A stretch of DNA of 64,000 nt. Source: Nocardia sp. NBC_01730. GTDB lineage: Bacteria; Actinomycetota; Actinomycetes; Mycobacteriales; Mycobacteriaceae. Both the position numbers and the translations under genes were made by a program. A model generated the notes under the pieces. The model searched no databases, had not been told where the DNA came from, and saw nothing but the letters and a program-made list of their open reading frames with translations. The stretch covers positions 4,588,001 through 4,652,000 of the forward strand of contig NZ_CP109162.1 in the NCBI RefSeq assembly GCF_035920445.1, in the 5' to 3' direction. Positions 7,428 through 57,650 of this stretch are shown in pieces. The number at the start of each line of letters is the position of its first letter. Position 1 is the first letter of the stretch.

Positions 7428-7545
7428 CTGGAATAGTGGAATCACAGGCCTTGGATTCGCCCGACTCGGTCTCGGTGTGGCAGCTGAACCGGGTGGGCGC
7501 GGGGGCGGAAACGACACAGCGCGATGAGGGGAGGTGGGACGCCCG

Positions 7546-9968: not shown

Positions 9969-9997
9969 CCGATCCGAATTGTCCGGTCCGGCTGTCA

Positions 9998-10269
9998 TAG
10001 GCGTACCTCCGCATTCGCTCCGGCCATGCGCGGGCTGACGATGGCCTACGTCCGACTGCGCCCATTAGGCGTACCTCCGCATTCGCTCCGGCCATGCGCG
10101 GGCTGACGATGGCCTACGTCCGACTGCGCCCATTAGGCGTACCTCCGCATTCGCTCCGGCCATGCGCGGGCTGACGATGGCCTACGTCCGACTGCGCCCA
10201 TTAGGCGTACCTCCGCATTCGCTCCGGCCATGCGCGGGCTGACGATGGCCTACGTCCGACTGCGCCCAT
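9998..10269 (+). repeat. Four identical 68-bp tandem repeats upstream of the CDF gene
   Basis: Copies start at 9998, 10066, 10134 and 10202 and are identical. Each begins TAGGCGTACC and ends CTGCGCCCAT. A short inverted pair, GGCCAT and ATGGCC, lies in each unit. Only the last copy is followed by TAGTCT, a possible -10 box. No open frame crosses the array convincingly because 68 is not a multiple of three. Confidence 0.97.
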
Positions 10270-10313
10270 TAGTCTGTTCGCGGATAGGTCGAAAACAGAG
10301 AGGACATGCTTCC

Positions 10314-11240: not shown

Positions 11241-11308
11241 GCCTTCGCGCACCGCCGATAACCGGCATGGCGCAAGCATTCGGGCGAGCTGGTCGGGCGT
11301 GCGCTGGA

Positions 11309-28263: not shown

Positions 28264-28722
28264 CTACCTCCGGTGCGCGTCGACGGCCGCCAGCTCCGCG
28301 GCGAGGGCTACGGTCTGTTCCCGCCAGCGCCGTAGATCGGTGACGCTCGGCGCGAGTTCGTAATCGTGGTGGTGCGCGGCCCGTGACAGCGCCGCCCACA
28401 GCGCCGCGACCCGCGCCGCGACCTCCGGTCCTGCGAAGGCGCGCAACGCGATCAGCTGCGCCCGCATCGGACAGCGGATCAGAGCGGGCGCCAGCCGCAT
28501 CCACAGTTCGTCGACGCACTGCTCCAGAGCGATCCGCAGAATCCACACGGTCGCCCGGGACCAAAGCCCGCCCGCGTCGGTCACCGAACCGGCGAGCAGC
28601 CGATCCACGGTGTCCAGCCGCTCGGCCACCGACGGACGATTCGCGGGCAGCCGCCGCGAGCCGTTCTTCGGCCCGCGCCCAGGTCCGCGGCGCGCGCCGG
28701 TGCGCGGACGCCGCCCGCTCAC
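28264..28722 (-). CDS. Small helical partner of the Rad50-like ATPase, HEPN-like Rx4H motif
   Basis: 152 residues, starting at GTG 28722, 7 bp after the stop of the large ATPase gene, so the two surely form one operon. A basic, disordered N-terminus (1-30) precedes an all-helical domain. Near the end of that domain is LSRAAHHHDYEL, in which Arg-x4-His matches the active-site pattern of HEPN RNases. The match is short and the family was not recognised, so this is only a hint. Alternatives are a structural subunit or regulator of the ATPase. Confidence 0.75.
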   Translation of the reverse strand: MSGRRPRTGARRGPGRGPKNGSRRLPANRPSVAERLDTVDRLLAGSVTDAGGLWSRATVWILRIALEQCVDELWMRLAPALIRCPMRAQLIALRAFAGPEVAARVAALWAALSRAAHHHDYELAPSVTDLRRWREQTVALAAELAAVDAHRR

Positions 28723-28729
28723 CGGCGCC

Positions 28730-31282
28730 TCACCGGGCCAGCCACGCGACGAACTTCTCGGTCTCGCCGATCAGCTCGCGCATCGTGCGCCCGATCGGCA
28801 CATGCGCGCCCGCCGTGGCATCGCGCAGCGCGTTCACCACCCACTGCCCTTCGCGCGCGACCAGGTTCTTGTTCAAGTCGTCGACCTTGCTGCCAACACC
28901 GAACACCGCGAGCGCGATCTTGGCCCTGGTCGACTGCGCGGCGTCGATGTGGCGTTCGACCTCGTAGTGGTTCATGCCCGCGGCGAGCAGGGTGCGTCGA
29001 GCCCTCGCCAGACCAGCCGCCTCGACCGCGGAACGACAGCAGGTGGCCACGAGTTCGTTGGCGATCGCGGCGGGCAGCTGCGGGGTGCGCACGAGCGCAC
29101 GGGCGTCATCGAGGTAGCGGCGGATCGGATCGCTCGACACCCGCACCTCGACCACCGAACGATCGCGGCGCTGCACTTCGAGCACGGTCGCGTCGAGCTC
29201 CATCCGCCGCACCGCCTCGGCGAGGCGCTCGTCGTGGGTGAAGACCACCACCTGGCGGGTCCACGCCACCATGGCGAGCACCTGGGCCAGGCCGTCCACC
29301 TTCGCCGGGTCCATCGCCTGCACCGGGTCGTCGATCATGACGAAGCGGAACGGGCTCTCCTCGACCGTGGCGCGCGGCAGGAACAGCGAGAGCCCCAGCG
29401 CGTGCAGCTCACCCTGGCTCATCACGCCGAGCGCGGCGCCGTCCACCTCGTCCACCGTGACGTCGAGCAGCACCCGGCGCGCGGTTCCCGCGTTGCCCTG
29501 CAGGCGGATCGCGCCCAGTTCGACACTGCTCTGCTGGCGCAGCGTCTGCCACACCCAGCGCGCCGTCGTCTCCAGCGGCGTCATGCGCTCGCCGCGCAGA
29601 CCCGCGGTCGCCGACTTCAACCAATCCTCGGCCTTCTTCACCGTGCGCAGTTCGGCGGCACGCGCGGCGACCTCGCGCGCCCCCTTCAGCCAAGTCGCGA
29701 TCCGCGGGACCAGCGGCGTCCACACCTCGTCGAGGCGGTCGAGTTCCTTGCGGGTGCCCTGCTGCAGCAGGTCCAGTTCGTCGACCAGCCGCGCGTGCGC
29801 GCCGCGCAGCCGGTCGGCAAGGTCGGGGGTGTATTCGGCACTGGTCAACGCGGCCCAGTCGGACCAAGCGCCGCGTACCGCGGAGGTGTCCACCGACGGC
29901 GGGTTGCGCGGATCGAATTCCAATTCCGCCGGAACGAGATCCGGCAGCGCCCGCGCCGCCCGTATGGCATGGCCCAGTTCGGCGCGCGCGGTGGTGAGCG
30001 CGTCGACTCGGGCGGCGAGCTGATCGATGGCGGCCTCGGTGTCGCGGGCCCAGGCGTCGTCGAGGGCGCCGCTTCCACAGACCGGGCACGGACATGTCCC
30101 GCGCGCCGCTCGGTGATCGCGCGCCTTGCGCAACAGCTCGAGCACCCGCAGATCGGCCTCGGCGTCGGCGGTGGCGCCCCTGGCCAGCGCCTCGCCGCAG
30201 TGCTCCAGGCGAGCGGCCACCTCTTCCACTTCGGTGTCGGTCGGCAGCGCGAGCCGCACGATCGCCCGCAGCCCGTCCGGCCCGGCCGGGTCGTCGACGG
30301 CGCCGAGCACCTCGCGCCCGATCGCGGTGAGATCCGGCTGGGCAGGGCGTAGCAGACCCGTCACCCGGACCGCACGGTCGTCTGCCACCGACGCGAGCAG
30401 CTCGAGCAGCTCGAGTCGTTCCTGGCGCGAATCACGCACGGCGCGTTCCAGTTCCAGCCGACGCATTCGGATTCGTTCCTGCGCCATGGTGAGTTCGTCG
30501 AGACCTAGCAGCTGGTGTAGCGCATCGAACAGATCGCTCGGCTTGCCGTCGACCAGGGCACCGAGCTCACTGTAAGACAGGAACGGGCGGTAGAGCTCCA
30601 GCTGAGCCGCCCACCGGTCCACGTCGAATTCCGTTGGCGAGGCGGGCGGATACTGCTGAGTCCAGTCCGCGTCGGCCAGATCCGCGGCGGGAGTCCACTC
30701 CTTGGCGATGGTCAACTGTGTGTCTGCCGAGGCTTCGCTCGGCCGAGCACTCCTTGTGTCTGCCGAGGCTTCGCTCGGCCGAGCACTCCTTGTGTCTGCC
30801 GAGGCTTCGCTCGGCCGAGCACTCCTTGGCGCACCGCCCGCGGTGAGCAGCGCCAGCTCGATGCGCGGCGCGTCACCGTCGTGCAAGTTGCGCCAGCCCT
30901 CGCGCCAAGCGGCCGACCGCCCGTCCCACCGGCGATTTCCACCGGTCAGGGCCAGTTCGGCGGCCTCGGCGAAACTGGACTTTCCGCTGCCGTTGCGGCC
31001 GACCACCAGGGTGAGTCCGGGCCCGGGTGGCAGGTCCAGCGTCGTCTCCGGCCCGATGCCGCGGAAGCCGCGCACCCGGATGGAGCGCAAGAAGATGCCG
31101 GAGTGGCCGAATGCCGTTGTCGGATCACCAGGTTCGGCGCCGCCGAGCGCACGCAGCACGGTCCGCGTCACCGACGGCGGCACCGCGGGATCCTCGGCGA
31201 GGCGCCTGGTCACCACCGCGGACAGCCGGGGCGCCGCGTCCGCTGGCCCGTCGACCTGGACAGCGTCGGGATCCAGGCGCAT
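28730..31282 (-). CDS. Rad50/RecF-like ABC ATPase with CPxC zinc hook
   Basis: 850 residues. Head part 1: Walker A GRNGSGKS (95-102) after FRGIGPETTLDLPPG. A central helical stretch contains CPCPVCG, a Rad50-type hook. Head part 2: the ABC signature is MSQGELHALGLS, Walker B is FVMIDDPVQAMD, then VVVFTHDER with the H-loop. This is the SMC/Rad50/RecF class, which act on DNA ends, recombination intermediates or foreign nucleic acid; it is not RecF, RecN, SbcC or SMC itself. ATG 31282 follows GGAGGGGG. Residues 153-188 are three perfect 12-residue repeats placed between head motifs, probably a surface loop. Confidence 0.9.
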   Translation of the reverse strand: MRLDPDAVQVDGPADAAPRLSAVVTRRLAEDPAVPPSVTRTVLRALGGAEPGDPTTAFGHSGIFLRSIRVRGFRGIGPETTLDLPPGPGLTLVVGRNGSGKSSFAEAAELALTGGNRRWDGRSAAWREGWRNLHDGDAPRIELALLTAGGAPRSARPSEASADTRSARPSEASADTRSARPSEASADTQLTIAKEWTPAADLADADWTQQYPPASPTEFDVDRWAAQLELYRPFLSYSELGALVDGKPSDLFDALHQLLGLDELTMAQERIRMRRLELERAVRDSRQERLELLELLASVADDRAVRVTGLLRPAQPDLTAIGREVLGAVDDPAGPDGLRAIVRLALPTDTEVEEVAARLEHCGEALARGATADAEADLRVLELLRKARDHRAARGTCPCPVCGSGALDDAWARDTEAAIDQLAARVDALTTARAELGHAIRAARALPDLVPAELEFDPRNPPSVDTSAVRGAWSDWAALTSAEYTPDLADRLRGAHARLVDELDLLQQGTRKELDRLDEVWTPLVPRIATWLKGAREVAARAAELRTVKKAEDWLKSATAGLRGERMTPLETTARWVWQTLRQQSSVELGAIRLQGNAGTARRVLLDVTVDEVDGAALGVMSQGELHALGLSLFLPRATVEESPFRFVMIDDPVQAMDPAKVDGLAQVLAMVAWTRQVVVFTHDERLAEAVRRMELDATVLEVQRRDRSVVEVRVSSDPIRRYLDDARALVRTPQLPAAIANELVATCCRSAVEAAGLARARRTLLAAGMNHYEVERHIDAAQSTRAKIALAVFGVGSKVDDLNKNLVAREGQWVVNALRDATAGAHVPIGRTMRELIGETEKFVAWLAR
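30719..30826 (-). repeat. Three 36-bp tandem repeats inside the ATPase gene
   Basis: Copies start at 30719, 30755 and 30791 and are identical. Read with the gene they encode RSARPSEASADT three times. Each copy contains the palindrome GCTCGGCCGAGC and the stem-loop GCCGAG-GCTTCG-CTCGGC. The same unit is found inverted at 31387-31494, just upstream of the gene. Confidence 0.97.
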
Positions 31283-31386
31283 GCGAAAACCCCCTCCACC
31301 ACCGAGCCGCCACACGTCCTCCGACCCCGTGCACGGCGCCTTTGTCGAAGCTGTGCGAAACGGTACCCGATCGCGCCGTATTCGCA

Positions 31387-31494
31387 AGGAGTGCTCGGCC
31401 GAGCGAAGCCTCGGCAGACACAAAAAGTGCTCGGCCGAGCGAAGCCTCGGCAGACACCAAAAGTGCTCGGCCGAGCGAAGCCTCGGCAGACACC
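31387..31494 (+). repeat. Three 36-bp tandem repeats upstream of the ATPase gene, inverted relative to the intragenic set
   Basis: Copies start at 31387, 31423 and 31459. The core GTGCTCGGCCGAGCGAAGCC is identical; only the first bases (AGGA or AAAA) differ. The orientation is opposite to the array at 30719-30826, so the two could pair as a long hairpin. Confidence 0.96.
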
Positions 31495-31822: not shown

Positions 31823-34693
31823 ATGACGACGCCCTGGACGGAAGACCAGGTCAGGGCGCTCGCACCGGACGCGGGTTCGCTGTCGGCGGCGCGCAAGTTT
31901 ACGGACCGTTGGCGTGGCGCCGGGCAGCACGGCGTCGCGCTGTGGGGGCAGTGCCAGGGCAGCGGCGCGGTGCCGTACCAGACGGTGGTCGATCTGTCCG
32001 GCCCGGCGTACAGCTGCTCCTGTCCGAGCCGCAAGTTCCCCTGCAAACACGCACTGTCGCTGTTGCTGGCCTGGGCCGTGGGCGAGGTTCCCGCGGTCCC
32101 GGAGACCGCGGACTACGCGGCGGCCTGGATCGGCGGCCGCGCGGCGCGGTCGGCGTCCACCACGGGGCGCGTGGCCCGCACACCGAACCCTGCCACCGCC
32201 GAGCAGCGCAGGGTGCGGGTGACCGCGGGACTGGAAGAACTCGACATCTGGCTCGGAGACCAGGTACGCACCGGGCTCGCGCAGACGGAACGCTCGTTCC
32301 GCGCCTTCGAGGCCATCGCCGCCAGGATGGTCGACGCACAGGCGCCTGGCCTCGCTTCGGCCCTGCGCCGACTGCCGACCACGGTGGTCACCAGGACCGA
32401 CTGGCCGGATCTCGTGCTGCGCGAGTATGCGCGGATGCACCTCCTGGTCGCCGCGCACCGGCAGCTCGACGACGTGGAGCCCGCGCTGCGTGCGAGTATC
32501 CGCACTCACATCGGCTACCCGAATCCGGCCGAGGCGGTGCGCGGCGAACCCGCGGTGCGGGACCGGTGGATGGTGTTCGGTGTGCGGGTCTCCGATGAGG
32601 AGCGGCTGCACACCAGGCGCACTTGGCTGTACGGGCGAGCGAGCAAGCGCTGGGCGCTGATCGTCGACCACTCCTTCGGCTCCCCCAGCTTTCCCGCCGA
32701 CGTTCCCGCGCTCGGTCAACTCGCCGATGTCGAACTGCACTACTACCCCGGCACCGCGCCGCTGCGGGCGCTCTGGGGCGAACGGCGCGGCCCCGCCGAA
32801 CCCTTCACCACGCTGCCCGCCGACAAGGACCGGCCGAAAACCATCGCGGCCGCACTGGCCGACCACGCCGCGGCGCTCGGCGCCGATCCGTGGCTGCGCA
32901 CATGGCCGATGCTGCTCGTCGACGTGATTCCCGCGCTGACCGAACAGGGTTGGTACCTCACCGAATCCGACGGCACGGCGCTGCCGATCGCCGCGGCCGA
33001 GCAACCGTGGCGACTGCTGGCCGTCTCCGGTGGCCACCCGGTGACGGTGGCCGCCGAATGGGGCACCGACGGGCTGGCTCCGATCTCGGTGTTCACCGCG
33101 GGCGAGGTCATCGACCTGGCGCCAACGGACCCCGTCGGCCGCCCGCCGAATTCGCCTGCCGTACAGACCTCGAGCGCGGATTTGACTTCCGTCGCGCTGC
33201 TCGGTACCGCGCGCCGGACACCGGATCTCGACCGGCTGGCGCCTCCGGTGGCGCGCGCCGCGGTCCGGTTGCCGACCGACCCGGCGCTGCGGCTTCTCGA
33301 AACCGCCGCGTTGCAGGATGTTTTCACGCGCGGCGCGGTCATGCCCGCCACCGCGACCGCGACCGAACCCGCGGCGGATGACGACCGCCGCCTGCTGCCG
33401 CGCCCGGCTGCGGCACGACTGACGCGCATGGTGCAGGAGCACTCGGCCTTCCTCCCGGAATGGTTCGAAGCAGCGGCGCCGCACGACTATCGGGCCCCGG
33501 GCGCGCTGAGCGTGCGACTACTGGAGCAGGCGAAGATCAACGCCGCGCTGCGCGAGCCACTGCTGCGCCTGGCCGGCGCCCGCGGCAGCTGGCTGGCCGC
33601 GCAGCACCCGGAGTGGCGGAACCTGGTGCGGCAGCAGCCCATCGCGTCCGACCTTTCCGTGGAAACCTGGCAGTTCGGGCAGCCGCCCGAGCGGCGCGAC
33701 TGGCTTGCCGCGCTCCGTCGTCGCGACGCCGACGCCGCCGGAAAGCGGCTCGTCGCGGCATGGCCGAAGGAATCCGGTCCGCTGAAGGCGGAGCTGCTGG
33801 CCGTGCTCGCCGAGGGCATCGGGCCGGATGACGAACCGCTGTTGGAGACGGCGCTGGACGATCGGCGCGCCGATGTGCGGCGCACCGCGGCGGGGCTGCT
33901 CGCGCTGCTGCCGAATTCGGCGTTCGCGCAGCGCATGCGGAACCGGGCGACCACGTGGATCCGCGCCGAGCACCGGATGCGGCACACGAATCTGGTGCCC
34001 GCTCTGCCCGACGCGCTCGACGCCGCCACACAGCGCGACGGAATCACCGACCGCACGGTCGAATTCGCCTACCGCTGGAACGGCGCGCCCGATGTTCAGG
34101 CCGCCCGTTTGCGGCAGGTGGTCGCGGCGACACCGCTGGCGCACTGGTCGAGTCTGCTGAACACACCGGAGCAGGCGGTGCGCACCACGATCGAGGACCG
34201 ATTCCGGCAGCCGATCTTCGATGGCTGGGTGGATGCCGCACTCGCACAACATGATTCGCCGTGGGCGCGCGCGCTGTTCGAGGCGGGCGTGCCGACCGAT
34301 CTGGCTATGCTGCGCCGGCGTGAGCTGTTCGCGCTGCTCCCGCTGCCCGACCGGACCTCGCATCTGTTGCGGCTGGACGGCTCCTGGCTCTCCGAGATCG
34401 AGGCACTGCTGCCCGCGATGGGCCACCCATGGCCGGACGCGCTGGCGCAGCATCTGATCCTGCTGCTGTTCGAGCGGGCACGGGCAGCGGCCCGCCGCCC
34501 GGACGCACACGGCGCCTCCCCGAACGCGCACCGGTCGCTGCTGGCCACGGCCGCTGTCCATCTCCCCGTCGCCGTCGCGGACGCCGTCGCCGCGGTGGCC
34601 CACCGGTGCGACGATCCCGCTTGGGAGCGCGCCTTCGACCAGCTCGCCCACGACCTCAACCACCGCTCGATCATGCTCGAGGAGTTGCAGTGA
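31823..34693 (+). CDS. SWIM zinc-finger protein, first gene of MoxR-VWA operon
   Basis: 956 residues. The SWIM finger is near the N-terminus: Cys65-x-Cys67-x6-Cys74-x-His76 (YSCSCPSRKFPCKHA), a module that binds DNA or protein. The remainder is helical, with HEAT-like stretches in the C-terminal half (for example ALDDRRADVRRTAAGLLALLPN). No enzymatic motif was found. Its stop overlaps the GTG of the MoxR gene (GTGA), so the operon is translationally coupled. SWIM proteins of this size recur beside MoxR, DUF5682 and VWA genes in actinobacteria. Confidence 0.92.
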   Translation: MTTPWTEDQVRALAPDAGSLSAARKFTDRWRGAGQHGVALWGQCQGSGAVPYQTVVDLSGPAYSCSCPSRKFPCKHALSLLLAWAVGEVPAVPETADYAAAWIGGRAARSASTTGRVARTPNPATAEQRRVRVTAGLEELDIWLGDQVRTGLAQTERSFRAFEAIAARMVDAQAPGLASALRRLPTTVVTRTDWPDLVLREYARMHLLVAAHRQLDDVEPALRASIRTHIGYPNPAEAVRGEPAVRDRWMVFGVRVSDEERLHTRRTWLYGRASKRWALIVDHSFGSPSFPADVPALGQLADVELHYYPGTAPLRALWGERRGPAEPFTTLPADKDRPKTIAAALADHAAALGADPWLRTWPMLLVDVIPALTEQGWYLTESDGTALPIAAAEQPWRLLAVSGGHPVTVAAEWGTDGLAPISVFTAGEVIDLAPTDPVGRPPNSPAVQTSSADLTSVALLGTARRTPDLDRLAPPVARAAVRLPTDPALRLLETAALQDVFTRGAVMPATATATEPAADDDRRLLPRPAAARLTRMVQEHSAFLPEWFEAAAPHDYRAPGALSVRLLEQAKINAALREPLLRLAGARGSWLAAQHPEWRNLVRQQPIASDLSVETWQFGQPPERRDWLAALRRRDADAAGKRLVAAWPKESGPLKAELLAVLAEGIGPDDEPLLETALDDRRADVRRTAAGLLALLPNSAFAQRMRNRATTWIRAEHRMRHTNLVPALPDALDAATQRDGITDRTVEFAYRWNGAPDVQAARLRQVVAATPLAHWSSLLNTPEQAVRTTIEDRFRQPIFDGWVDAALAQHDSPWARALFEAGVPTDLAMLRRRELFALLPLPDRTSHLLRLDGSWLSEIEALLPAMGHPWPDALAQHLILLLFERARAAARRPDAHGASPNAHRSLLATAAVHLPVAVADAVAAVAHRCDDPAWERAFDQLAHDLNHRSIMLEELQ

Positions 34694-35790
34694 CCACAAT
34701 CGACCCCACGCCGAACCTCCTGCGCCCGCACGCGGAACAGGCGTACGCCGACGAGTTGCGTGCCCTCGCCGCCGACGACGAACGGCCCCGGCCGCCGTCC
34801 TGGCGGTTGTCACCCTGGGCGGTGGTCACCTACCTGCTCGGCGGAACTCTCGACGACGGCACCGTGATCACCCCGAAGTACGTCGGGCCCCGCAGGCTGA
34901 TGGAGGTGGCGGTTTCGACGCTGGCAACTGATCGCGCGCTACTCCTGCTCGGCGTGCCGGGAACTGCCAAAACCTGGGTCTCGGAACATCTTTCGGCGGC
35001 GATCAGCGGTGCGTCGACGCTGCTCGTGCAGGGGACTTCGGGCACGGCCGAGGAAGCGATCCGGTACGGCTGGAACTACGCGCGACTGCTCGCCGAAGGG
35101 CCGAGTAAAAGCGCACTGGTGCCCTCGCCGGTGCTGACCGCGATGCGCACCGGTGCGATCGCCAGGATCGAGGAGCTCACCCGCATCCCCTCGGACGTGC
35201 AGGACGCGCTGATCACCGTGCTGTCGGAGAAGACGCTCCCGGTACCGGAACTCGGCATGGAGGTGCAGGCGAGCAAAGGGTTCAACGTGATCGCCACCGC
35301 GAACAACCGCGACCGGGGCGTCAACGATCTGTCCTCCGCGCTGCGCCGCCGGTTCAACACGGTGGTACTTCCGCTACCCGCCAGCGAGGACGAGGAGGTC
35401 GCCATCGTCAGCAAGCGGGTCGAGCAGCTCGGGTCCGCCCTGGAACTGCCCACGGTGCCCGCCGCGGCCGAGGAGGTGCGGCGGGTGGTGCGGGTCTTCC
35501 GTGAGCTGCGCTCCGGCAGCACCGCCGATGGGCGGACCAAGCTCAAGTCGCCGTCGGGAACGCTGTCCACCGCCGAGGCGATCTCAGTGATCACCAACGG
35601 GATCGCGCTGTCGGCCCACTTCGGCGACGGGGTGCTGCGCGCCTCCGACATCGCCGGCGCCGTGCTCGGCTCGGTGATCAAGGACCCGGTGGCCGATGCG
35701 GTGGTCTGGACCGAGTACCTGGAGGCCGTGGTCCGGGAGCGGCCGGACTGGTCGGACTTCTACCGTGCCTGCCGTGAGATCACCGGGTGA
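34690..35790 (+). CDS. MoxR-type AAA+ ATPase
   Basis: 366 residues. Walker A is GVPGTAKT (88-95). The Walker B place reads AIARIEELTRI, with Glu where Asp is usual, sensor 1 is IATANNRD and the arginine-finger stretch is ALRRRF. MoxR ATPases remodel protein complexes, usually with a VWA protein to deliver metal or a client; the VWA gene is third downstream. Starts with GTG overlapping the SWIM stop and ends overlapping the DUF5682 start by 4 nt. Cytosolic. Confidence 0.94.
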   Translation: MTTIDPTPNLLRPHAEQAYADELRALAADDERPRPPSWRLSPWAVVTYLLGGTLDDGTVITPKYVGPRRLMEVAVSTLATDRALLLLGVPGTAKTWVSEHLSAAISGASTLLVQGTSGTAEEAIRYGWNYARLLAEGPSKSALVPSPVLTAMRTGAIARIEELTRIPSDVQDALITVLSEKTLPVPELGMEVQASKGFNVIATANNRDRGVNDLSSALRRRFNTVVLPLPASEDEEVAIVSKRVEQLGSALELPTVPAAAEEVRRVVRVFRELRSGSTADGRTKLKSPSGTLSTAEAISVITNGIALSAHFGDGVLRASDIAGAVLGSVIKDPVADAVVWTEYLEAVVRERPDWSDFYRACREITG

Positions 35791-38516
35791 ACTCCTGCAC
35801 CGGAGCCAAGCCGGTGACCAGGGTGTTCGGTATTCGCCACCATGGTCCCGGCTCGGCGCGCTCATTGCGGCTGGCCCTGGAGGCATTTCGTCCCGACATG
35901 ATCCTCATCGAAGGTCCCGCCGACGCCGACCCGCTGGTGGGCTACGTCGCGGCCGAAGGGATGGCGCCACCGGTCGCGCTGCTGGCCTATGTCCCGGACG
36001 CACCGGCCAAGGCCGCGTTCTGGCCGTACGCGGTGTTCTCCCCCGAGTGGCAGGCGCTGCGATACGCCGTGCGGAACTCCGTGCCTGTCCGGTTCTGCGA
36101 TCTGCCCGCGACGGTCGTCCTCGCGGCGGAGGACGAGCCCGGCGATCGATTCGATCCACTGACCGCCCTGGCCGAGGCGGGCGGCTACGACGACGCCGAG
36201 CGCTGGTGGGACGCGGTCGTCGAATCCGCCCCCGACGCCGACGCGTTCGACCCCATCACCGAGGCGATGGGCGCACTACGGGATTCCGCCGAGCAGACCG
36301 CGCGCGAACAACAGCCTGTGCCTGGCACCACCGAGCACGCACCGGCAAACACCGAAACGCGCAACGAGCCAGCGCACAGCAAACCACCACAAACCGCATC
36401 GGCCCACGGCCGACCCGGGCACGGCGAACCAACACACAGCGAATCGACGCGAAGCGCGCACGACCAACCAGCGCACGGCGCACCGGCCCCCGGCCAACCG
36501 GGGCACGGCGAACCAACACGCGGCGAAGCGACGCGAGGCGTACGAGCGCACGACCAAACAGCGCAAGGCGCACCAGCTCACAGACCGGCGACAGGCGAAC
36601 GGGCGCACAACGAGTCAGCACGAGGCGAACCAGCACGAGGCGGACGGACGGACAACGAATCAGCGCACGACCGAGCAGCAGGCGAACCAGCGCACGACAG
36701 TCACGCACACCACGAACCCATACCCGGCGAATCCACGGATACCGAAGCACTGGAGGCGAATTCGGTTGCCGAAGCGCTCTCCGACGCCGACATCAGCCGA
36801 CCGGCACCACCTGATCCGATCACCATTGACGCGAACACGCTGCGGCGTGAGGCCTACATGCGGCAGACCATGCGCAAGGCGCTGAAGGACGGGGCGGTCC
36901 GGCTGGCGGTCGTGTGCGGCGCATGGCACGCGCCCGCACTCACGGGCAAGCTCGGCCCCGCCGCCCCTGATACCCGTCTGCTGAAAGGGCTTCCGAAGAC
37001 CAAGACCCGACTCACCTGGGTGCCTTGGACACATTCGCGGCTGTCCACGACCTCCGGATACGGTGCGGGCGTCACCTCGCCGGGCTGGTACCACCACCTG
37101 TTCACCGAGACCGAGCAGCCGATCGTCCGGTGGCTGACGAAAGTCGCCGGCGTGCTGCGCGCCCACGATCTGCCCGTCTCCAGCGCGCACATCATCGAAT
37201 CTGTCCGGCTCGCCGACACTCTCGCCGCGCTGCGCGGCCGCCCACTCGCGGGGCTGTCGGAGGTCACCGAGGCGACCAGGTCGGTGATGTGCGCGGGCGA
37301 CGAGACGATGCTGCGTCTGGTGGTCGGCGAGCTCGTCGTCGGCGAGGCGCTCGGCAGCGTTCCCGAGGGGACACCGACCGTCCCGCTGGACGCGGACCTA
37401 CGCGCCAAGATCCGGTCACTACGTGTGAAACAGGAACCTCATGCCCGCACCATAGACTTGGACCTGCGCAAGCAGCGCGAAGTCGAACGGTCGCGGCTCC
37501 TGCACCGGCTGCGCGTGCTCGAAATCGGGTGGGGCACGCTCACCACAAGCGAGGTACGCGGCTCCGGCACCTTCCGGGAGACCTGGACGCTGGAATGGCG
37601 GCCCGAGTACGCGATCTCGATCATCGAGGCCTCCCGCTGGGGCACCACCATCCGTACCGCCGCCGAGGCGAAGATCCTCGACACCGCGAGCCGGGCGGAG
37701 AGCACCGTCGTCGAGTTGACCGCCGCGCTGGAGGTGGCCCTGCTCGCTGATCTCGGCGGTGCCACCGACGGGCTGATCGCCCGGCTGGAATCCGCCGCCG
37801 CGCTCGACCACGACGTCACCCACCTGCTCGCCGCCCTGCCAGGGCTGATCAGAACGCTGCGCTACGGCGACGTGCGCGGCACCGACACCAAGGCACTCGG
37901 ACACGTCGCCGACGGACTGCTCGTGCGCATCTGCGCGGGCCTGCCCGCGGCAGTGACGGGACTGGACACCGATGCCGCCGCCGAGCTGTGCACCCTGCTC
38001 GACGCGGCACACACCGCCATCCATACCAGGGACGACAGCTGGGCGACCGACGAGTGGCTGGCCGTGCTCGGCCGCCTCGCCGACCGAGACGACGTGCACG
38101 GCGCCTTGGTCGGCCGGGCCGTTCGGCTACTCGCCGACGCCGGCCGCATCGGCGACGCCGAGTCCGCGCGTCGGCTCGCCGCCGCCCTGTCGGTCGGTAA
38201 CACGGCCGCGGCCAAGGCGGCGTGGATCGACGGGTTCCTCGGCGGCCACGGCTTGCTGCTCGTGCACGATCGAGAGTTGTTGCGGCTCATCGACGATTGG
38301 CTGCGCAAACTCGGCGACGACGCGTTCGTCGAAACACTACCGCTGCTGCGCCGGACCTTCGGCGCGTTCGAATCCGGCGAGCGCCGCGCGATCGGGCAGG
38401 CGGTGCGCGACGGCGGATCCGTCGTCGCGGCAGCGGGCACCGCGGCGGAATTCGATGTGGAGCGCGGAAGGATCGCGGTGCGCACTGCCGCGGAGATCCT
38501 GGGGGTGACGGTATGA
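35787..38516 (+). CDS. DUF5682 family protein (TIKI/EreA/ChaN-like fold)
   Basis: 909 residues. The N-terminal GIRHHGPGSARSL (15-27), LIEGPADADPLV (40-51) and the later LAVVCGAWHAPAL (His381) are the conserved blocks of DUF5682, related to the TraB/TIKI/EreA/ChaN hydrolase-like superfamily. Residues 172-320 form a low-complexity insert of degenerate HGEPTRGEA-like repeats, probably a flexible linker splitting the domain. The C-terminal 500 residues are mostly helical. GTG 35787 overlaps the MoxR stop (GTGA); the stop overlaps the VWA ATG. Activity unknown. Confidence 0.9.
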   Translation: MNSCTGAKPVTRVFGIRHHGPGSARSLRLALEAFRPDMILIEGPADADPLVGYVAAEGMAPPVALLAYVPDAPAKAAFWPYAVFSPEWQALRYAVRNSVPVRFCDLPATVVLAAEDEPGDRFDPLTALAEAGGYDDAERWWDAVVESAPDADAFDPITEAMGALRDSAEQTAREQQPVPGTTEHAPANTETRNEPAHSKPPQTASAHGRPGHGEPTHSESTRSAHDQPAHGAPAPGQPGHGEPTRGEATRGVRAHDQTAQGAPAHRPATGERAHNESARGEPARGGRTDNESAHDRAAGEPAHDSHAHHEPIPGESTDTEALEANSVAEALSDADISRPAPPDPITIDANTLRREAYMRQTMRKALKDGAVRLAVVCGAWHAPALTGKLGPAAPDTRLLKGLPKTKTRLTWVPWTHSRLSTTSGYGAGVTSPGWYHHLFTETEQPIVRWLTKVAGVLRAHDLPVSSAHIIESVRLADTLAALRGRPLAGLSEVTEATRSVMCAGDETMLRLVVGELVVGEALGSVPEGTPTVPLDADLRAKIRSLRVKQEPHARTIDLDLRKQREVERSRLLHRLRVLEIGWGTLTTSEVRGSGTFRETWTLEWRPEYAISIIEASRWGTTIRTAAEAKILDTASRAESTVVELTAALEVALLADLGGATDGLIARLESAAALDHDVTHLLAALPGLIRTLRYGDVRGTDTKALGHVADGLLVRICAGLPAAVTGLDTDAAAELCTLLDAAHTAIHTRDDSWATDEWLAVLGRLADRDDVHGALVGRAVRLLADAGRIGDAESARRLAAALSVGNTAAAKAAWIDGFLGGHGLLLVHDRELLRLIDDWLRKLGDDAFVETLPLLRRTFGAFESGERRAIGQAVRDGGSVVAAAGTAAEFDVERGRIAVRTAAEILGVTV
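36300..36746 (+). repeat. Degenerate coding repeats in the DUF5682 gene
   Basis: About 450 bp of irregular, diverged repeats built from GCGCACGGCGAACC-like words; they encode a linker rich in His, Gly, Ala, Glu, Pro and Thr. The unit length is variable, unlike the perfect arrays elsewhere, so this is probably an older expansion. Confidence 0.75.
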
Positions 38517-39673
38517 CTGCCGACGAAACACAGGCGCGGCGTTGGCGTTTGGTGCTCGGCGCGGCGGCCGAGGAGGGTCTCGGCGGGCTCGGCTCCGCTG
38601 AGGACGTGGCCATGGACCGGGCGTTGTCGACGCTGTACAACACCCACGACCACCAGTCGCCGGGCAAGCGCACCGGCGGGCTGCAGGGCTCGGCGCCGCG
38701 CGTGGCCCGCTGGCTGGGCGACATTCGCGGCTACTTCCCCGGCACTGTCGTCGAGGTGATGCAGCGCGACGCCGTGCAGCGGCTGAACCTCACCCAGCTG
38801 CTGTTGGAGCCGGAGTTGCTCGAGGCGGTCGAGCCGGACGTGCACTTGGTAGGCACTTTGCTGAGCCTCAACCGGGTGATGCCCGAGACCACCAAGGCGA
38901 CCGCGCGCATGGTGGTGGAAAAAGTGGTCCGCGAGATCGAGCAGCGCATCGCAGCGCAGACTGTCGCCGCGGTCAACGGTGCGCTGAACCGCGCGGCCCG
39001 TGTCACGCGCCCACGCCTGCGAGATATCGACTGGGACCGCACCATTCGCAAGAACCTCGCGACGTATCTGCCCGAGCACCGCACCGTGGTGCCGGAACGC
39101 CTCGTCGGCTACGGCCGCAAGGCACAGGCGGTGCGTCGCGACGTCGTGCTCGCCATCGATCAATCCGGGTCGATGGCCACCAGCGTCGTGTATGCGTCGG
39201 TGTTCGGCGCGGTGCTCGCGTCCATGCGGTCGCTGCGAACCTCGCTGGTGGTCTTCGACACCGAAATCGTCGATCTCACCGACAAACTCGACGACCCGGT
39301 GGAGGTGCTGTTCGGCACCCAGCTCGGTGGCGGCACCGACATCAACCGAGCTCTCGCCTACTGTCAGTCCCTCGTCACCCAGCCCGCCGACACACTGTTC
39401 GTCCTCATCTCCGATCTGTACGAGGGCGGCATACGCGACGACATGCTCCGCCGTGTGAACGCGATGAAGGAGTCCGGCGTCCAGATCGTCGTCCTGCTCG
39501 CCCTCTCCGACGACGGCGCCCCCGCCTTCGACCACGATAATGCCGCCGCCCTCGCGGCCCTCGACATTCCCACCTTCGCCTGCACCCCCGACAAATTTCC
39601 CACCCTCCTGGCCTTGGCCCTCGACCGCGGCGACATCCAATCCTGGGCCAACACCGATGCCGCCCACCGCTGA
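38513..39673 (+). CDS. VWA domain protein, partner of MoxR ATPase
   Basis: 386 residues. The C-terminal half is a von Willebrand factor A domain with a complete MIDAS: DQSGS (Asp216, Ser218, Ser220), Thr275 in GGGTDIN and Asp301 in ISDLYEGG. The N-terminal half is helical. No signal peptide or TM, so it acts in the cytosol. ATG overlaps the DUF5682 stop (ATGA). A MoxR-VWA pair usually forms a metal-dependent chaperone; SWIM and DUF5682 proteins would give targeting and effector parts. Last gene of the operon. Confidence 0.94.
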   Translation: MTADETQARRWRLVLGAAAEEGLGGLGSAEDVAMDRALSTLYNTHDHQSPGKRTGGLQGSAPRVARWLGDIRGYFPGTVVEVMQRDAVQRLNLTQLLLEPELLEAVEPDVHLVGTLLSLNRVMPETTKATARMVVEKVVREIEQRIAAQTVAAVNGALNRAARVTRPRLRDIDWDRTIRKNLATYLPEHRTVVPERLVGYGRKAQAVRRDVVLAIDQSGSMATSVVYASVFGAVLASMRSLRTSLVVFDTEIVDLTDKLDDPVEVLFGTQLGGGTDINRALAYCQSLVTQPADTLFVLISDLYEGGIRDDMLRRVNAMKESGVQIVVLLALSDDGAPAFDHDNAAALAALDIPTFACTPDKFPTLLALALDRGDIQSWANTDAAHR

Positions 39674-48261: not shown

Positions 48262-48474
48262 GGCGACTCCGGTATCTTGCGGGACACCCGCACCCGGTCG
48301 GCGCCGATGAGCGCTGCGCGATTATGTCTCATCACGCCTCCAGTATCTTGCGGGACACCCGCACCCGGTCGGCGCCGATGAGCGCTGCGCGATTATGTCT
48401 CATCACGCCTCCAGTATCTTGCGGGACACCCGCACCCGGTCGGCGCCGATGAGCGCTGCGCGATTATGTCTCAT
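48258..48474 (-). other. Three coupled mini-ORFs made by the 71-bp repeats
   Basis: Frames 48403-48474, 48332-48403 and 48258-48332. The first two are identical (MRHNRAALIGADRVRVSRKI then LEA and stop), the third differs in its last codons. Each ATG shares one base with the preceding stop (TGATG), and each copy has GGAGG just before it. Whether they are translated is unknown. Confidence 0.45.
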
Positions 48475-48484
48475 CACGCCTCCA
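48272..48484 (-). repeat. Three 71-bp tandem repeats at the 3' end of the CaiB gene
   Basis: Copies start at 48272, 48343 and 48414; identical except where the array meets unique DNA. On the gene's strand each unit starts with TGGAGGCGTGATGAGACATA and so duplicates the last codons (LEA), the stop codon and the following 60 bp of the CaiB gene. Confidence 0.97.
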
Positions 48485-49691
48485 GCTCGTCGATCTCGGC
48501 CTCGCTCATGCCGAGCAACTCGGAGAGCACCTCTCGGGTGTGCTCTCCCAGATCGGGCCCGACATTGCGGATGGGCAAGGACTGTTCACCGATCACCGGG
48601 ACGATGCCGGGGAAGCCGACCATCTTCGGTTCCGGCGCACCGACATCCACCGCGAACGGCTGGATCATGTTGCGCGCCCGGTACTGCTCGTCGGCCACGA
48701 TGTCGGCGGCGGTATAGATAGGGCCGCACGGAATGGCCGCGGCCTCCAGCAGCTTCAGCGCCTCGGCGCGGGTGTGCCGGATCGTCCACTCGCCGATCGC
48801 CGCGTCGAGTCGCTCGCGGTGACGCCAGCGGCCCGCGTTGTCTTGGAGCTCCGGGTCGGCGGCCAGGTCCGGGCGCTCGATGACCGCCATATAGCGCTGG
48901 AAAATGGCATCGCCGTTGCCGCCGATGATGATGCTGGCTCCGTCGCCGCACGGGTAGGCGTTACTCGGCGCGATGCCCTCCATCCGGCCGCCGACGCGTT
49001 CACGCTGGATGCCGTAGGCGAGGTAGTCCGGCACCAGCGATTCCATCACGGACAGGATCGCCTCGTTGAGCGCCACGTCGACAACCCGCTCAGACAGGGG
49101 TATCGGCGCGTCTTGCGCGGTTCGGCGTTCGCGCTGGAACAGCATCATCACGGTGCCGAAGGCGGCATAGATGCCCGCGATCGAATCACCGATCGAGACC
49201 CCGGTGCGCACCGGAGGACGATCCGGGTCGCCGACCAGCTCACGCAGGCCGCCGACCGCTTCGGCCACGGCGGCGAACCCGGGACGCGCGGACAGCGGCC
49301 CGGTCTGCCCATAGGCCGAGATTCTGGTGATCACGAGGTCCGGATTCGCCTCGTTCAGCACCTCCGGCCCCAGACCCCACTTCTCCAGCATGCCGGGCCG
49401 GAAGTTCTCCAGCAGCACGTCACACCGCCGGATCAGATCGAGCACGATGCCGCGCCCCGCCTTGCTGCGCAGATCCAGCGTGATGGACTTCTTGTTGCGG
49501 TTGACGGTCCGATAGAGCATCGAGGTGTCGCCGCCGTAGAGTCGCCAGTTGCGCAGCTCGTCACCGACTTTCGGCCGTTCCACCTTGATCACCTCGGCGC
49601 CGAAGTCACCGAGGATCCGCCCTGCGGTCGGCGCGGCGATGTAGTTGCCGAGTTCCAGGACGCGCACCCCGTCCAGCGGCCGAATACTCAT
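48474..49691 (-). CDS. CaiB/BaiF-type CoA transferase (class III)
   Basis: 405 residues. N-terminal LDGVRVLELGNYIAAPTAGRIL and FGAEVIKVERP, then RNKKSITLDL, with the catalytic Asp169 in SIGDSIAG. Class III enzymes move CoA between carboxylic acids through a mixed anhydride on this Asp. The neighbour HMG-CoA lyase suggests a branched-chain or dicarboxylic acid pathway. ATG 49691 was chosen over ATG 49700 because the family begins MxxxPLDGVRVLE. Confidence 0.93.
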   Translation of the reverse strand: MSIRPLDGVRVLELGNYIAAPTAGRILGDFGAEVIKVERPKVGDELRNWRLYGGDTSMLYRTVNRNKKSITLDLRSKAGRGIVLDLIRRCDVLLENFRPGMLEKWGLGPEVLNEANPDLVITRISAYGQTGPLSARPGFAAVAEAVGGLRELVGDPDRPPVRTGVSIGDSIAGIYAAFGTVMMLFQRERRTAQDAPIPLSERVVDVALNEAILSVMESLVPDYLAYGIQRERVGGRMEGIAPSNAYPCGDGASIIIGGNGDAIFQRYMAVIERPDLAADPELQDNAGRWRHRERLDAAIGEWTIRHTRAEALKLLEAAAIPCGPIYTAADIVADEQYRARNMIQPFAVDVGAPEPKMVGFPGIVPVIGEQSLPIRNVGPDLGEHTREVLSELLGMSEAEIDELEA

Positions 49692-56306: not shown

Positions 56307-57650
56307 CTACAGTTCAGCCAGTTCGTAGTCGCCGACCCGAGCGCTGAGCACTCGCAGATGCTCGAGCCCGCCACCCAGGGTGCGCTCGATCGCAGTCAAC
56401 CGGGCCACGTAGTGGCCGACCGGGTATTCGGCGGTGACGCCGATACCACCGTGCATCTGAATCGCTTCCTGCCCGATGTGCCGCGCGGCGCGGCTGACCT
56501 GCAAGCGCGCACGGGACGCGATCACCGGGTCGTAGGCTCCGTCCACCAGCGACGCCGTGGCGTACAGGCTCATGCTGCGCGCCAGCTCCAGCGAAACGTA
56601 CATGTTGGCCGCCCGCTGGGTGAGCGTCTGGAACTTCGACAGCGTGACACCGAACTGCTTGCGCTGCTTGAGGTATTCGGTGGTCAGCCGGAGCGCCTCC
56701 GCCATAGCGCCGACCGATTCCGCGCACAGGCCGGCCTGTGCGTGCCCGAGCACCGACGCGATCGCCTCCGCGGCGTCCGCGGCGCCGAGACGCTCGGCGG
56801 GCGCGTTGTCCAGTTCCAGCTGCGCACCGCGCTGACCGTCCACCGTGCGGTAGGGCTTACGGACCACACCGGTGGCGTTCGGCGCGACCAAGAACAGCCC
56901 GACCCCGCCATCCGGCAGCGCGGCGCTGACCACGAGCTCGTCGGCACTGTCGCCGTGCGGGACCGGGTTCTTGACGCCGGTCAGCGTGTAGGAATCCCCC
57001 CCGGCGGTAGCGACGGGCCCGGAGGCGGCAGCCTGCGTAACCACAGAGGGCCCCGCGGACGCCGCATCGAACACAGCGGTAGCGACGGGCCCGGAGGCGG
57101 CGGCCTGCGTAACCCCAGAGGGCCCCGCGGACGCCGCATCGAACACAGCGGTAGCGACGGGCCCGGAGGCGGCAGCCTGCGTAACCACAGAGGGCCCCGC
57201 GGACGACACCGAAGGCACGGCCGCCGCAGCGGTGGTCGCCGGCTCGGTGGACGGCCAGCGCACACCGGGCTCGGCGTGCGCGAAGGCGAGCAGCTTCGCG
57301 CCCGCGGCGACCTCCGGCAGGATCCGCTGACGCTGTTCAGCGCTGCCTGCCGTGGCGACGAGCCCGCCCGGCACGAGCACCGCGTCCAGGATCGGCTCCG
57401 GCGCGAGCCTGCGGCCGACCTCTTCCAGCACGACCATCGTTTCCACCGGACCAGCGCCGACACCGCCGTCCTCTTCGCTGAAGCTCAGCCCGAGCACGCC
57501 GAGATCGGCGAGCTGACGCCATACGTCGCGGCTCCAGCCGAGCTCGGAATCGGTGATCTTCAGCCGCGATTCGGCGTCGTAGTTGCGCGCGAGCAGGTCA
57601 CGAACCGTGTCGCGGAGCATGACCTGCTCATCGGTGAGATCGAAATCCAT
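56307..57650 (-). CDS. Acyl-CoA dehydrogenase, second subunit type, with tandem-repeat insert
   Basis: 447 residues; about 70 come from a repeat insert. N-terminal helices 1-115, then LLAFAHAEPGVRWPST, the C-terminal domain with QMHGGIGVTAEYPVGHY. The YxGxxE(V/I)QR motif of the partner is missing, as in the beta chains of actinobacterial heteromeric enzymes, so it probably pairs with the product of the gene upstream. The insert at 149-216 (AGPSVVTQAAASGPVATAVF repeated) sits in the middle-domain loop before KNPVPHGDSAD. Start ATG 57650, 9 bp after its partner. Confidence 0.93.
   Translation of the reverse strand: MDFDLTDEQVMLRDTVRDLLARNYDAESRLKITDSELGWSRDVWRQLADLGVLGLSFSEEDGGVGAGPVETMVVLEEVGRRLAPEPILDAVLVPGGLVATAGSAEQRQRILPEVAAGAKLLAFAHAEPGVRWPSTEPATTAAAAVPSVSSAGPSVVTQAAASGPVATAVFDAASAGPSGVTQAAASGPVATAVFDAASAGPSVVTQAAASGPVATAGGDSYTLTGVKNPVPHGDSADELVVSAALPDGGVGLFLVAPNATGVVRKPYRTVDGQRGAQLELDNAPAERLGAADAAEAIASVLGHAQAGLCAESVGAMAEALRLTTEYLKQRKQFGVTLSKFQTLTQRAANMYVSLELARSMSLYATASLVDGAYDPVIASRARLQVSRAARHIGQEAIQMHGGIGVTAEYPVGHYVARLTAIERTLGGGLEHLRVLSARVGDYELAEL
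57004..57204 (-). repeat. 72-bp tandem repeats (2.8 copies) inside the acyl-CoA dehydrogenase gene
   Basis: Copies start at 57004, 57076 and 57148; the last is cut at 57 bp. They differ only at two or three bases. 72 bp is 24 codons, so the frame is kept. The core word is GTAGCGACGGGCCCGGAGGC. Confidence 0.96.

What the first reader, a model, noticed from the sequence alone, without database searches (positions are those of the whole stretch)
31823..39673. Fully coupled SWIM-MoxR-DUF5682-VWA operon: candidate conflict or chaperone system
Four genes overlap by 4 nt at every junction (GTGA, GTGA, ATGA), so their products are made together. Seen: SWIM finger C-x-C-x6-C-x-H, MoxR Walker A, DUF5682 HHGPGS and GAWHAP blocks, complete VWA MIDAS. 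Known: MoxR-VWA pairs are metal-dependent remodelling machines, and related sets have been proposed as NTP-driven biological conflict systems. Inference: SWIM targets nucleic acid or protein, DUF5682 is the effector.
Basis: partly seen in the sequence, partly recalled or inferred. Interest (0 to 1): 0.75.

Follow-up and report, generated by a model that had tools for sequence, protein, structure and literature searches.

The report
Nocardia version of E. coli yehLMPQ
A four-gene operon that probably builds an ATP-driven machine around an unstudied hydrolase is really there, but it belongs to a stable, widespread bacterial gene set with an uncharacterised cousin in ordinary laboratory E. coli, and does not look like an anti-virus weapon.

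Summary
In detail: four genes, 31823-39673, each pair overlapping by 4 nt. E. coli K-12 yehL-yehM-yehP-yehQ has the same four components. Three types emerge: A (this one, with DUF5691), B (yeh-like, DUF4132 nearby instead) and C (VWA-MoxR-divergent DUF5682; also in this genome). All 80 Nocardia-type loci keep the gene order, 35 of 36 genus genomes carry it, yehLMPQ is in 5301 of 5426 E. coli genomes, and relatives are rare on plasmids and in 1 of 50,697 phage records. That speaks against the conflict reading. DUF5682's N-terminal domain resembles TraB/TIKI proteins (score 34, shuffle maximum 24, but probability only 30%), with invariant H18, E42, H381. Best reading: a MoxR-VWA motor that remodels or activates a TIKI-like hydrolase, aimed by the SWIM/solenoid protein. 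Substrate and activity are unknown.

The parts
31823..34693 (+). SWIM zinc finger protein fused to DUF5691 (956 aa)
   Evidence: ORF; PF04434 1.3e-6 and PF18944 8.7e-132; AF2 model mean pLDDT 87, pTM 0.68
32015..32050 (+). SWIM finger CSCPSRKFPCKH (aa 65-76)
   Evidence: Sequence; the four ligand positions are CCCH in 43 of 46 aligned sequences, gapped in 2, other letters in 1
33179..34687 (+). DUF5691 domain (aa 453-955), predicted helical-repeat (HEAT/ARM-like) solenoid
   Evidence: Pfam; structure matches over aa 603-956 are mostly helical-repeat proteins
34690..34693 (+). GTGA stop/start overlap SWIM>MoxR
   Evidence: Sequence; such an overlap kept in 77 of 80 loci
34690..35790 (+). MoxR AAA+ ATPase (366 aa); Walker A GVPGTAKT, Walker B region IARIEELTR
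   Evidence: PF07728 2.5e-38; sequence; motif survey
35787..35790 (+). GTGA stop/start overlap MoxR>DUF5682
   Evidence: Sequence
35787..38516 (+). DUF5682 protein (909 aa): TraB/TIKI-like N-terminal alpha/beta domain plus C-terminal helical part
   Evidence: PF18934 2.3e-253; AF2 model; hhalign to TraB
35838..35843 (+). H18-H19 of GIRHH, first GxxH motif
   Evidence: H18 in 83 of 83 sequences, H19 in 79 of 83
35910..35912 (+). E42 of IEGP near the end of strand 2
   Evidence: 83 of 83; strand 38-44 in the model
36282..36845 (+). Low-complexity A/P/E/T/G/H linker (188 aa between R165 and R354), partly tandem-repeated DNA
   Evidence: tandem repeat at 36395-36581; pLDDT under 50 over aa 189-337
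36918..36929 (+). GAWH (G378 to H381), second GxxH motif
   Evidence: G378 and H381 in 83 of 83
38513..38516 (+). ATGA stop/start overlap DUF5682>VWA
   Evidence: Sequence
38513..39673 (+). VWA_CoxE protein (386 aa) with complete MIDAS
   Evidence: PF05762 1.3e-52; DQSGSM, GTDI, ISD
28730..31423 (-). Divergent RecF/SMC-type ATPase (true start uncertain), frequent neighbour in Nocardia; not part of the cassette elsewhere
   Evidence: PF02463 4e-14; on this side in 61 of 80 Nocardia-type loci (10 of the 19 others have under 3 kb of upstream sequence), 0 of 33 other loci

Best explanation
The operon encodes a YehL-type MoxR-VWA machine. The MoxR AAA+ ring and the MIDAS-bearing VWA protein form an ATP- and metal-dependent motor/adaptor pair. 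It docks on and remodels (activates, loads or releases) DUF5682, a two-part protein with an N-terminal TraB/TIKI-like hydrolase domain and a C-terminal helical part. The SWIM protein, with its DUF5691 solenoid, is the recognition subunit that chooses the substrate; in E. coli-like sets a DUF4132 gene stands near the set instead of DUF5691. The cellular role is more likely chromosomal stress or quality control than phage defence. Shown by sequence: gene order, domains, motif conservation, DUF5691/DUF4132 exclusivity in the loci sampled, a TraB-like local profile match. Inferred: complex formation, hydrolysis, direction of action, substrate, stress role.
For: Same four components in E. coli yehLMPQ; SWIM-DUF5691-MoxR-DUF5682-VWA order in Rhizobium and Deinococcus, in Hymenobacter with SWIM (below cut-off) and DUF5691 in one gene, and the first four genes in Methylosinus with no VWA gene listed. 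Order kept in 80 of 80 Nocardia-type loci, one cut by its contig end before the VWA. DUF5691 just upstream of DUF5682 in 38 of the 38 genomes with a strong DUF5691 match among 60 searched. A MIDAS-like D-x-SGSM...D pattern in 96 of 99 loci, six-frame search. DUF5682 N-domain against 9 TraB/GumN proteins: local score 34.1, E 5e-4; 100 column shuffles mean 13.9, SD 2.7, maximum 24.3; reversed 12.8; six other family pairs E 0.18 or worse; in a permissive alignment GIRHH/GSIH, IEGP/VEAD and R...GAWHAP/R...GALHLyG fall in register. H18, E42, E87, D105, R354, E355, H381 invariant in 83 sequences 23-94% identical to the window protein. Closest solved MoxR relatives Midasin and NorQ. Core-gene behaviour.
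Against: hhalign probability for TraB is only 30% (34% in the first set); the confident core is about 31 columns around GAWH; the 202-column alignment needs a very permissive setting, and in global mode the match is weak (score 12.5, probability 1.2%). One of the nine TraB rows has no GxxH. The structure searches were filled by helical repeats and did not test the N-domain. The first Glu of the TIKI 2His/2Glu set (PMC6254334, passages) is not at the matching place (I or V at 16). No complex was modelled. No biochemical or phenotypic data were found in the papers searched. In three class relatives SWIM/DUF5691 are not in the same transcript.
Confidence: 0.45

Rival explanations
1. Cofactor or metal insertion machine: MoxR plus VWA_CoxE matures DUF5682 or an unlinked metalloenzyme, as proposed for NorQ/NorD, CbbQ/CbbO and CoxD/CoxE (recalled); DUF5682 is a scaffold or metal-site holder rather than a hydrolase.
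For: The VWA matches PF05762 VWA_CoxE; NorQ is the second closest solved MoxR relative; ChaN, a haem-linked protein (recalled), is listed as a TIKI-fold protein in PMC6254334 (passage).
Against: No shared oxidoreductase or metalloenzyme gene stands out in the annotated cassettes inspected (E. coli; seven plasmid records; two further records, carry no annotation). Solenoid and SWIM parts are not typical of those systems (recalled).
Confidence: 0.2
2. Biological conflict (anti-phage or abortive) system: the SWIM/solenoid protein senses an invader and the MoxR-VWA pair triggers DUF5682 as a toxic hydrolase.
For: Patchy at phylum scale: DUF5682 in 10 of 149 genomes. Several paralogous sets in one genome. 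Plasmid copies near a nuclease/recombinase gene, IS elements with a toxin-antitoxin pair, or a type I restriction system. Related vWA-MoxR ternary systems are proposed conflict systems (PMC7159879, passages) and some lie near CRISPR loci (PMC10910872, passages). PHROGs holds families matching DUF5682 (2.9e-35) and the VWA (1.1e-67).
Against: 0 PADLOC matches at E 0.01 for the four proteins and for nine relatives. In 35 of 36 genomes of the genus and 5301 of 5426 E. coli. MoxR median best-segment identity 90%. Ordinary neighbours. 1 of 50,697 phage records, an unverified contig, and no confirmed viral contigs locus. Only VWA-type domains matched in the VWA protein and in YehP.
Confidence: 0.15
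3. Genotoxic-stress machine: the SWIM protein (with WGR-DUF4132 or DUF5691) marks damaged nucleoprotein and the MoxR-VWA-DUF5682 complex strips or cleaves it.
For: DUF4132 gene drA0166 and the WGR gene dr2173 rise on DdrO depletion, and the same passage says E. coli MolR was described as in the LexA regulon (PMC8533742, passage). The Agrobacterium cassette DUF4132 protein carries a WGR domain. In Nocardia a RecF/SMC-type ATPase gene is divergent from the operon in 61 of 80 loci. Midasin, which strips assembly factors from pre-ribosomes (recalled), is the closest solved MoxR relative.
Against: [quoted passage not shown] No LexA-type box between 31424 and 31823: the nearest hit downstream, at 31865, lies inside the gene with 3 mismatches, and the window holds 68 such hits against 35 expected. 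No match near yehL with a strict pattern (both consensus sequences recalled, so inconclusive). The SMC-type neighbour is absent from 33 other loci.
Confidence: 0.12

Closest known systems
Escherichia coli K-12 yehL-yehM-yehP-yehQ (MoxR YehL subfamily)
   Same: MoxR, DUF5682, VWA_CoxE and SWIM proteins encoded together; MoxR with the hRhEE[LI]TR Walker B region
   Different: Order MoxR-DUF5682-VWA-SWIM; no DUF5691; DUF4132 gene yehI upstream; separate MoxR clade. YehL is named as a MoxR subfamily in print (PMC3893208, PMC11432383, passages); those passages give it no function
TraB/GumN (TIKI superfamily) proteins such as E. coli YbaP
   Same: GxxH, E and R...GxxH blocks in the same order; local profile score above all 100 shuffles
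   Different: DUF5682 has a large C-terminal helical part and, in Nocardia, a variable disordered linker; about 14% identity in the long permissive alignment; weak in global mode
MoxR-vWA ternary conflict systems (Kaur et al. 2020, PMC7159879, passages)
   Same: MoxR and vWA co-encoded with further conserved proteins
   Different: No Pfam match to a ternary-system third component; PF20030 bpMoxR 19.7 bits against a 27-bit cut-off; no fused effector domain matched
RavA-ViaA, NorQ-NorD and Midasin
   Same: AAA+ ring with a MIDAS/VWA partner or domain
   Different: ViaA model 16.7 bits against a cut-off of 500; NorQ E 2.7e-7 and Midasin E 6e-19 are distant

Membership tests
YehL-type MoxR cassette (yehLMPQ-like) | MoxR AAA+ ATPase homologous to YehL | tested here: met
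   40% identity over 361 aa, E 4e-69; shared hRhEE[LI]TR signature
YehL-type MoxR cassette (yehLMPQ-like) | DUF5682 protein | tested here: met
   PF18934 2.3e-253 in the window, 2.4e-98 in YehM
YehL-type MoxR cassette (yehLMPQ-like) | VWA_CoxE protein with MIDAS | tested here: met
   PF05762 in both; MIDAS residues in the window protein
YehL-type MoxR cassette (yehLMPQ-like) | SWIM protein homologous to YehQ | tested here: inconclusive
   Both carry PF04434; profile score 30.3 against a maximum of 19.8 in 40 shuffles, but E 0.013, probability 3% and only the SWIM end aligned
YehL-type MoxR cassette (yehLMPQ-like) | DUF4132 gene nearby | tested here: not met
   Own genome has no DUF4132 match at E 0.001; DUF5691 instead. 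0 of 45 type A loci have DUF4132 within 15 kb on the contig held, 10 of 10 type B loci do; some contigs are shorter than that. So the window set is a sister type, not a yeh operon proper
YehL-type MoxR cassette (yehLMPQ-like) | Published definition of the YehL subfamily | not testable with these tools
   The defining review was not read; only its subfamily names were seen, quoted in other papers
TIKI/TraB superfamily | GxxH after strand 1, Glu after strand 2, second GxxH after a later strand | tested here: met
   H18, E42, G378, H381 in 83 of 83, G15 in 82 of 83, at strand ends in the model
TIKI/TraB superfamily | Profile similarity to a member family | tested here: inconclusive
   hhalign local score 34.1 against shuffle maximum 24.3 and E 5e-4, but probability 30%, about 31 confident columns, and weak in global mode
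TIKI/TraB superfamily | Parallel beta-sheet TIKI fold | tested here: inconclusive
   Search lists filled by the helical part; N-domain not tested alone
TIKI/TraB superfamily | 2His/2Glu, first Glu two residues before the first His (as in RRSP) | tested here: not met
   Position 16 is I or V; YbaP has S there too (GSIH), so it is not universal in the superfamily. I claim TraB/TIKI-like, not the 2His/2Glu subgroup
MoxR-vWA ternary conflict systems | bpMoxR-type MoxR or a further ternary-system component | tested here: not met
   PF20030 below cut-off and no other such Pfam match in the four proteins
MoxR-vWA ternary conflict systems | Variable effector domains fused to the vWA protein | tested here: not met
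   Only VWA-type domains matched in the window VWA protein and in YehP
Known anti-phage defence system | Match to a PADLOC model | tested here: not met
   0 families at E 0.01 for the four window proteins and for nine relatives

The most novel reading that the evidence does not exclude
The set is a new class of ATP-dependent, substrate-guided proteolytic machine in bacteria, unrelated to Clp, Lon, FtsH, HslUV or the proteasome: a MoxR ring and VWA adaptor drive a TIKI-type peptidase (DUF5682) that carries its own helical scaffold, while exchangeable receptors (SWIM with DUF5691, or with DUF4132 in the E. coli type) choose the targets.
Probability: 0.15. Interest if true: 0.85.

Novelty: new variant of a known kind. 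Interest (0 to 1): 0.45.

Why it matters
A core but uncharacterised E. coli K-12 operon (yehLMPQ) and its actinobacterial sister become one testable problem. The comparison names candidate catalytic residues (H18, E42, H381 of the window DUF5682), predicts a receptor slot filled by two families that are not detectably related (DUF5691 or DUF4132), and gives a harmless laboratory strain in which to test them. If DUF5682 is a hydrolase driven by a MoxR ring, the orphan YehL subfamily of MoxR ATPases would gain a function.

Tried and rejected
Conflict-system reading: rejected as the leading one (see rivals).

DUF5691 as a distant DUF4132 homologue: not supported (score 20.1; maximum of 40 shuffles 20.3).

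PDB sequence search with the DUF5682 profile gave only chance-level hits (best E 0.022, ATP synthase b subunits) and with the SWIM-DUF5691 profile none. PF04187 (ChaN-type) gave no match in 100 genomes, so no ChaN profile could be built. LexA-box scans led nowhere. Promoter-like sites: 0 found; terminator-like sites: 4, none on the + strand, mean 2.9 in shuffles. A first MIDAS pattern found nothing because its spacing was wrong and was redone.

Dropped rows: an L151 reading of 78 aa was left out of the first TraB set by length; a 283-aa reading without a GxxH motif was used, where the near-duplicate L156 was dropped. In one search, 42 MoxR sequences were prepared and 41 entered the tree. In one search a linker length was measured 52 times over 80 loci. 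The structure alignment of DUF5682 used 82 of the 360 proteins listed; that of SWIM-DUF5691 used 45 of the 61 readings that passed a length filter.


Full report
What is there. Junction bases were read directly: GTGA at 34690, GTGA at 35787, ATGA at 38513. Pfam gives SWIM plus DUF5691 for the first protein, AAA_5 for the second, DUF5682 for the third and VWA_CoxE for the fourth. No NCBIfam model reaches its cut-off for any of the four and no PADLOC model matches at E 0.01.

How conserved is it. All 80 keep SWIM-DUF5691, MoxR, DUF5682, VWA in that order; one is cut by its contig end before the VWA. Median best-segment identity to the window is 90% for MoxR, 81% for VWA, 74% for DUF5682 and 56% for SWIM-DUF5691, so the putative recognition subunit changes fastest. 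Four-nt overlaps are kept at the first junction in 77 of 80 loci, at the second in 47 of 80 and at the third in 31 of 79. Among 60 genomes (own, genus and order), 38 have a strong DUF5691 match and in all 38 it lies upstream of DUF5682 on the same strand; 35 of the 36 genomes of the genus, own included, are among them, and the exception (G006) has only a divergent DUF5682. In a spread of 149 genomes of the phylum DUF5682 occurs in 10 and, by DUF5691 nearby, type A in 9, three of them with a weak, partial DUF5691.

Outside the phylum. Rhizobium and Deinococcus have SWIM, DUF5691, MoxR, DUF5682, VWA as separate genes, Deinococcus with a small extra gene; Hymenobacter has DUF5691 and a SWIM match below cut-off in one gene; Methylosinus has the first four genes, with no VWA gene listed in a gene table known to be incomplete. 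E. coli K-12 yehL, yehM, yehP and yehQ are MoxR, DUF5682 (E 2.4e-98), VWA_CoxE (2.3e-72) and SWIM (1.2e-7), with the DUF4132 gene yehI upstream. Iodobacter and Agrobacterium also have DUF4132 genes in or beside the set.

In print. YehL is known as a MoxR subfamily (PMC3893208 and PMC11432383, passages). Searches for DUF5682 and for DUF5691 found no paper in the held library. SWIM+MoxR+VWA found two papers whose passages do not describe this set. Two or more of the yeh gene names found two papers: one opened, a deletion list, the other seen as a listing only. yehM alone found 27 papers, most unrelated by title; of three opened, one names yehM among genes mutated under copper, one among genes expressed in one condition, and in the third the word was not found. 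SWIM zinc finger with AAA, VWA and operon found none. DUF4132 found three, two of them opened as passages. Most subscription papers are not in the library, so a description there is not excluded.

Three types. A MoxR tree of 41 sequences separates a clade with the DUF5691 sets (24 tips, support 0.99; 19 tips labelled DUF5691) from a clade holding E. coli and the DUF4132 sets (14 tips, 0.95; 8 with DUF4132 detected by tblastn) and a third group (3 tips) of VWA-MoxR-divergent DUF5682. By position, 45 of 45 type A loci have DUF5691 within 5 kb and 0 of 45 have DUF4132 within 15 kb; 10 of 10 type B loci have DUF4132 within 15 kb and no DUF5691; of 17 type C loci 1 has DUF4132 nearby. Limits: some contigs are shorter than 15 kb; types A and B were sorted partly by the presence of DUF5691, so the tree is the independent check. 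Of the five tips in the DUF5691 clade without a tblastn label, three (L135-L137) have a weak DUF5691 by profile, and two (Fusobacterium L141 and the unverified 'phage' contig L150) have none detected, against a strict rule. DUF5691 and DUF4132 are not detectably related. This genome carries type A (window) and type C (4.19 Mb).

DUF5682. In 83 sequences 23-94% identical to the window protein, R17, H18, P21, E42, G43, P86, E87, W88, D105, W141, E146, R354, E355, M358, G378 and H381 are invariant. The AlphaFold2 model has mean pLDDT 80 and pTM 0.75, with 506 of 909 residues at 90 or more and 162 under 50, mostly the linker: an alpha/beta N-terminal part, then a largely helical one. Against nine TraB/GumN proteins the N-domain profile scores 34.1 (E 5e-4, probability 30%); 100 column shuffles reach at most 24.3, and the reversed profile 12.8; in global mode the pair scores 12.5 with probability 1.2%. 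Six other family pairs gave E 0.18 or worse. In a permissive local alignment GIRHH stands over GSIH, IEGP over VEAD, and the R...GAWHAP block over R...GALHLyG; only the last block is confidently aligned. The TIKI set in print uses 2His/2Glu (PMC6254334, passages); DUF5682 keeps two His and one Glu. This is suggestive of, but does not prove, a TIKI-type fold, and does not show activity. In Nocardia the link between the two halves of this domain is stretched by a low-complexity segment: 188 aa here, 9 to 177 aa in the 52 measurements made over 80 loci, but 11 to 19 aa in 70 sequences of the other two search sets.

MoxR and VWA. The Walker A is GVPGTAKT; the Walker B region reads hRhEE[LI]TR in the window and in relatives of types A, B and C, while the usual MoxR form is hhhhDE (recalled). 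A MIDAS-like D-x-SGSM pattern is found in 96 of 99 loci in a six-frame scan not restricted to the VWA gene. Closest solved relatives of the MoxR are Midasin (6e-19) and NorQ (2.7e-7); the VWA has none at E 0.01.

Is it defence. Against: no PADLOC match for these or nine relatives; yehLMPQ in 5301 of 5426 E. coli genomes, 5162 with 80% or more of it, 5320 of 5322 places on chromosomes; DUF5682 relatives in 31 (YehM query) and 35 (window query) of 72,556 plasmid records, several of them chromosome-sized, and in 1 of 50,697 phage records, unannotated and marked unverified; no confirmed locus in viral contigs. Neighbours with Pfam matches are a carboxylesterase, a ClpP-type protein, an FtsX/ABC transporter pair, PAP2, GNAT, LysR and a protein kinase; the esterase is found near 52, the transporter genes near 68 and 64, the kinase near 47 and the ClpP near 1 of the 80 loci, whose flanks are at most 10 kb. 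For: patchiness at phylum level, paralogues, a few copies beside nuclease, IS, toxin-antitoxin or restriction genes, and two PHROGs families that match DUF5682 and the VWA.

Most likely working. MoxR plus VWA captures and remodels a partner with ATP; the partner encoded with it in all three types is DUF5682, whose conserved residues and TraB-like domain suggest a hydrolase; the SWIM protein and its solenoid, the fastest-changing part, choose the target. Steps shown: composition, linkage, motifs, local profile similarity. Steps inferred: complex formation, hydrolysis, target choice, stress role. I put 0.45 on this, 0.2 on cofactor or metal insertion, 0.15 on conflict and 0.12 on a genotoxic-stress form.

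Noticed in passing
window 30719-30828 and 31390-31494: Two arrays of three 36-bp hairpin-forming units in inverted orientation, about 560 bp apart; a 30-base core is found six times in the whole genome at up to one mismatch, all here, and a 23-base core in none of 160 fetched loci. One array sits in frame in the RecF/SMC-type ATPase gene and adds 36 residues (SARPSEASADT-type) that its best-matching relative lacks exactly; the other lies at or just before the start of that gene, whose start codon is uncertain. It could be a small mobile or recombining element, or mark an invertible segment at a divergent promoter.
   Followed up: partly
window 28730-31423 and 28264-28722, minus strand: RecF/SMC-type ATPase and a small gene without Pfam match, divergent from the operon; the ATPase is on this side in 61 of 80 Nocardia-type loci and in none of 33 others.
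   Followed up: partly
L035 (own genome 4186000-4204000), about 6425-11344: Second, divergent set VWA-MoxR-DUF5682 (type C) in the same genome.
   Followed up: partly
window 36395-36581: 84-bp tandem repeat inside DUF5682 coding for part of the His/Pro/Ala-rich linker; linker length varies widely between Nocardia species.
   Followed up: partly
window 9998-10272, 48267-48485, 57004-57205: Near-perfect tandem repeats of 68, 71 and 72 bp units, possible VNTR loci.
   Followed up: no
L142 8374-8985 and L145 8759-8995: Small genes without Pfam match between MoxR and DUF5682 in Hymenobacter and Deinococcus sets.
   Followed up: no
MoxR, window 34690-35790 and relatives: Walker B region reads hRhEE[LI]TR in types A, B and C instead of the usual D-E (the usual form is recalled).
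   Followed up: partly
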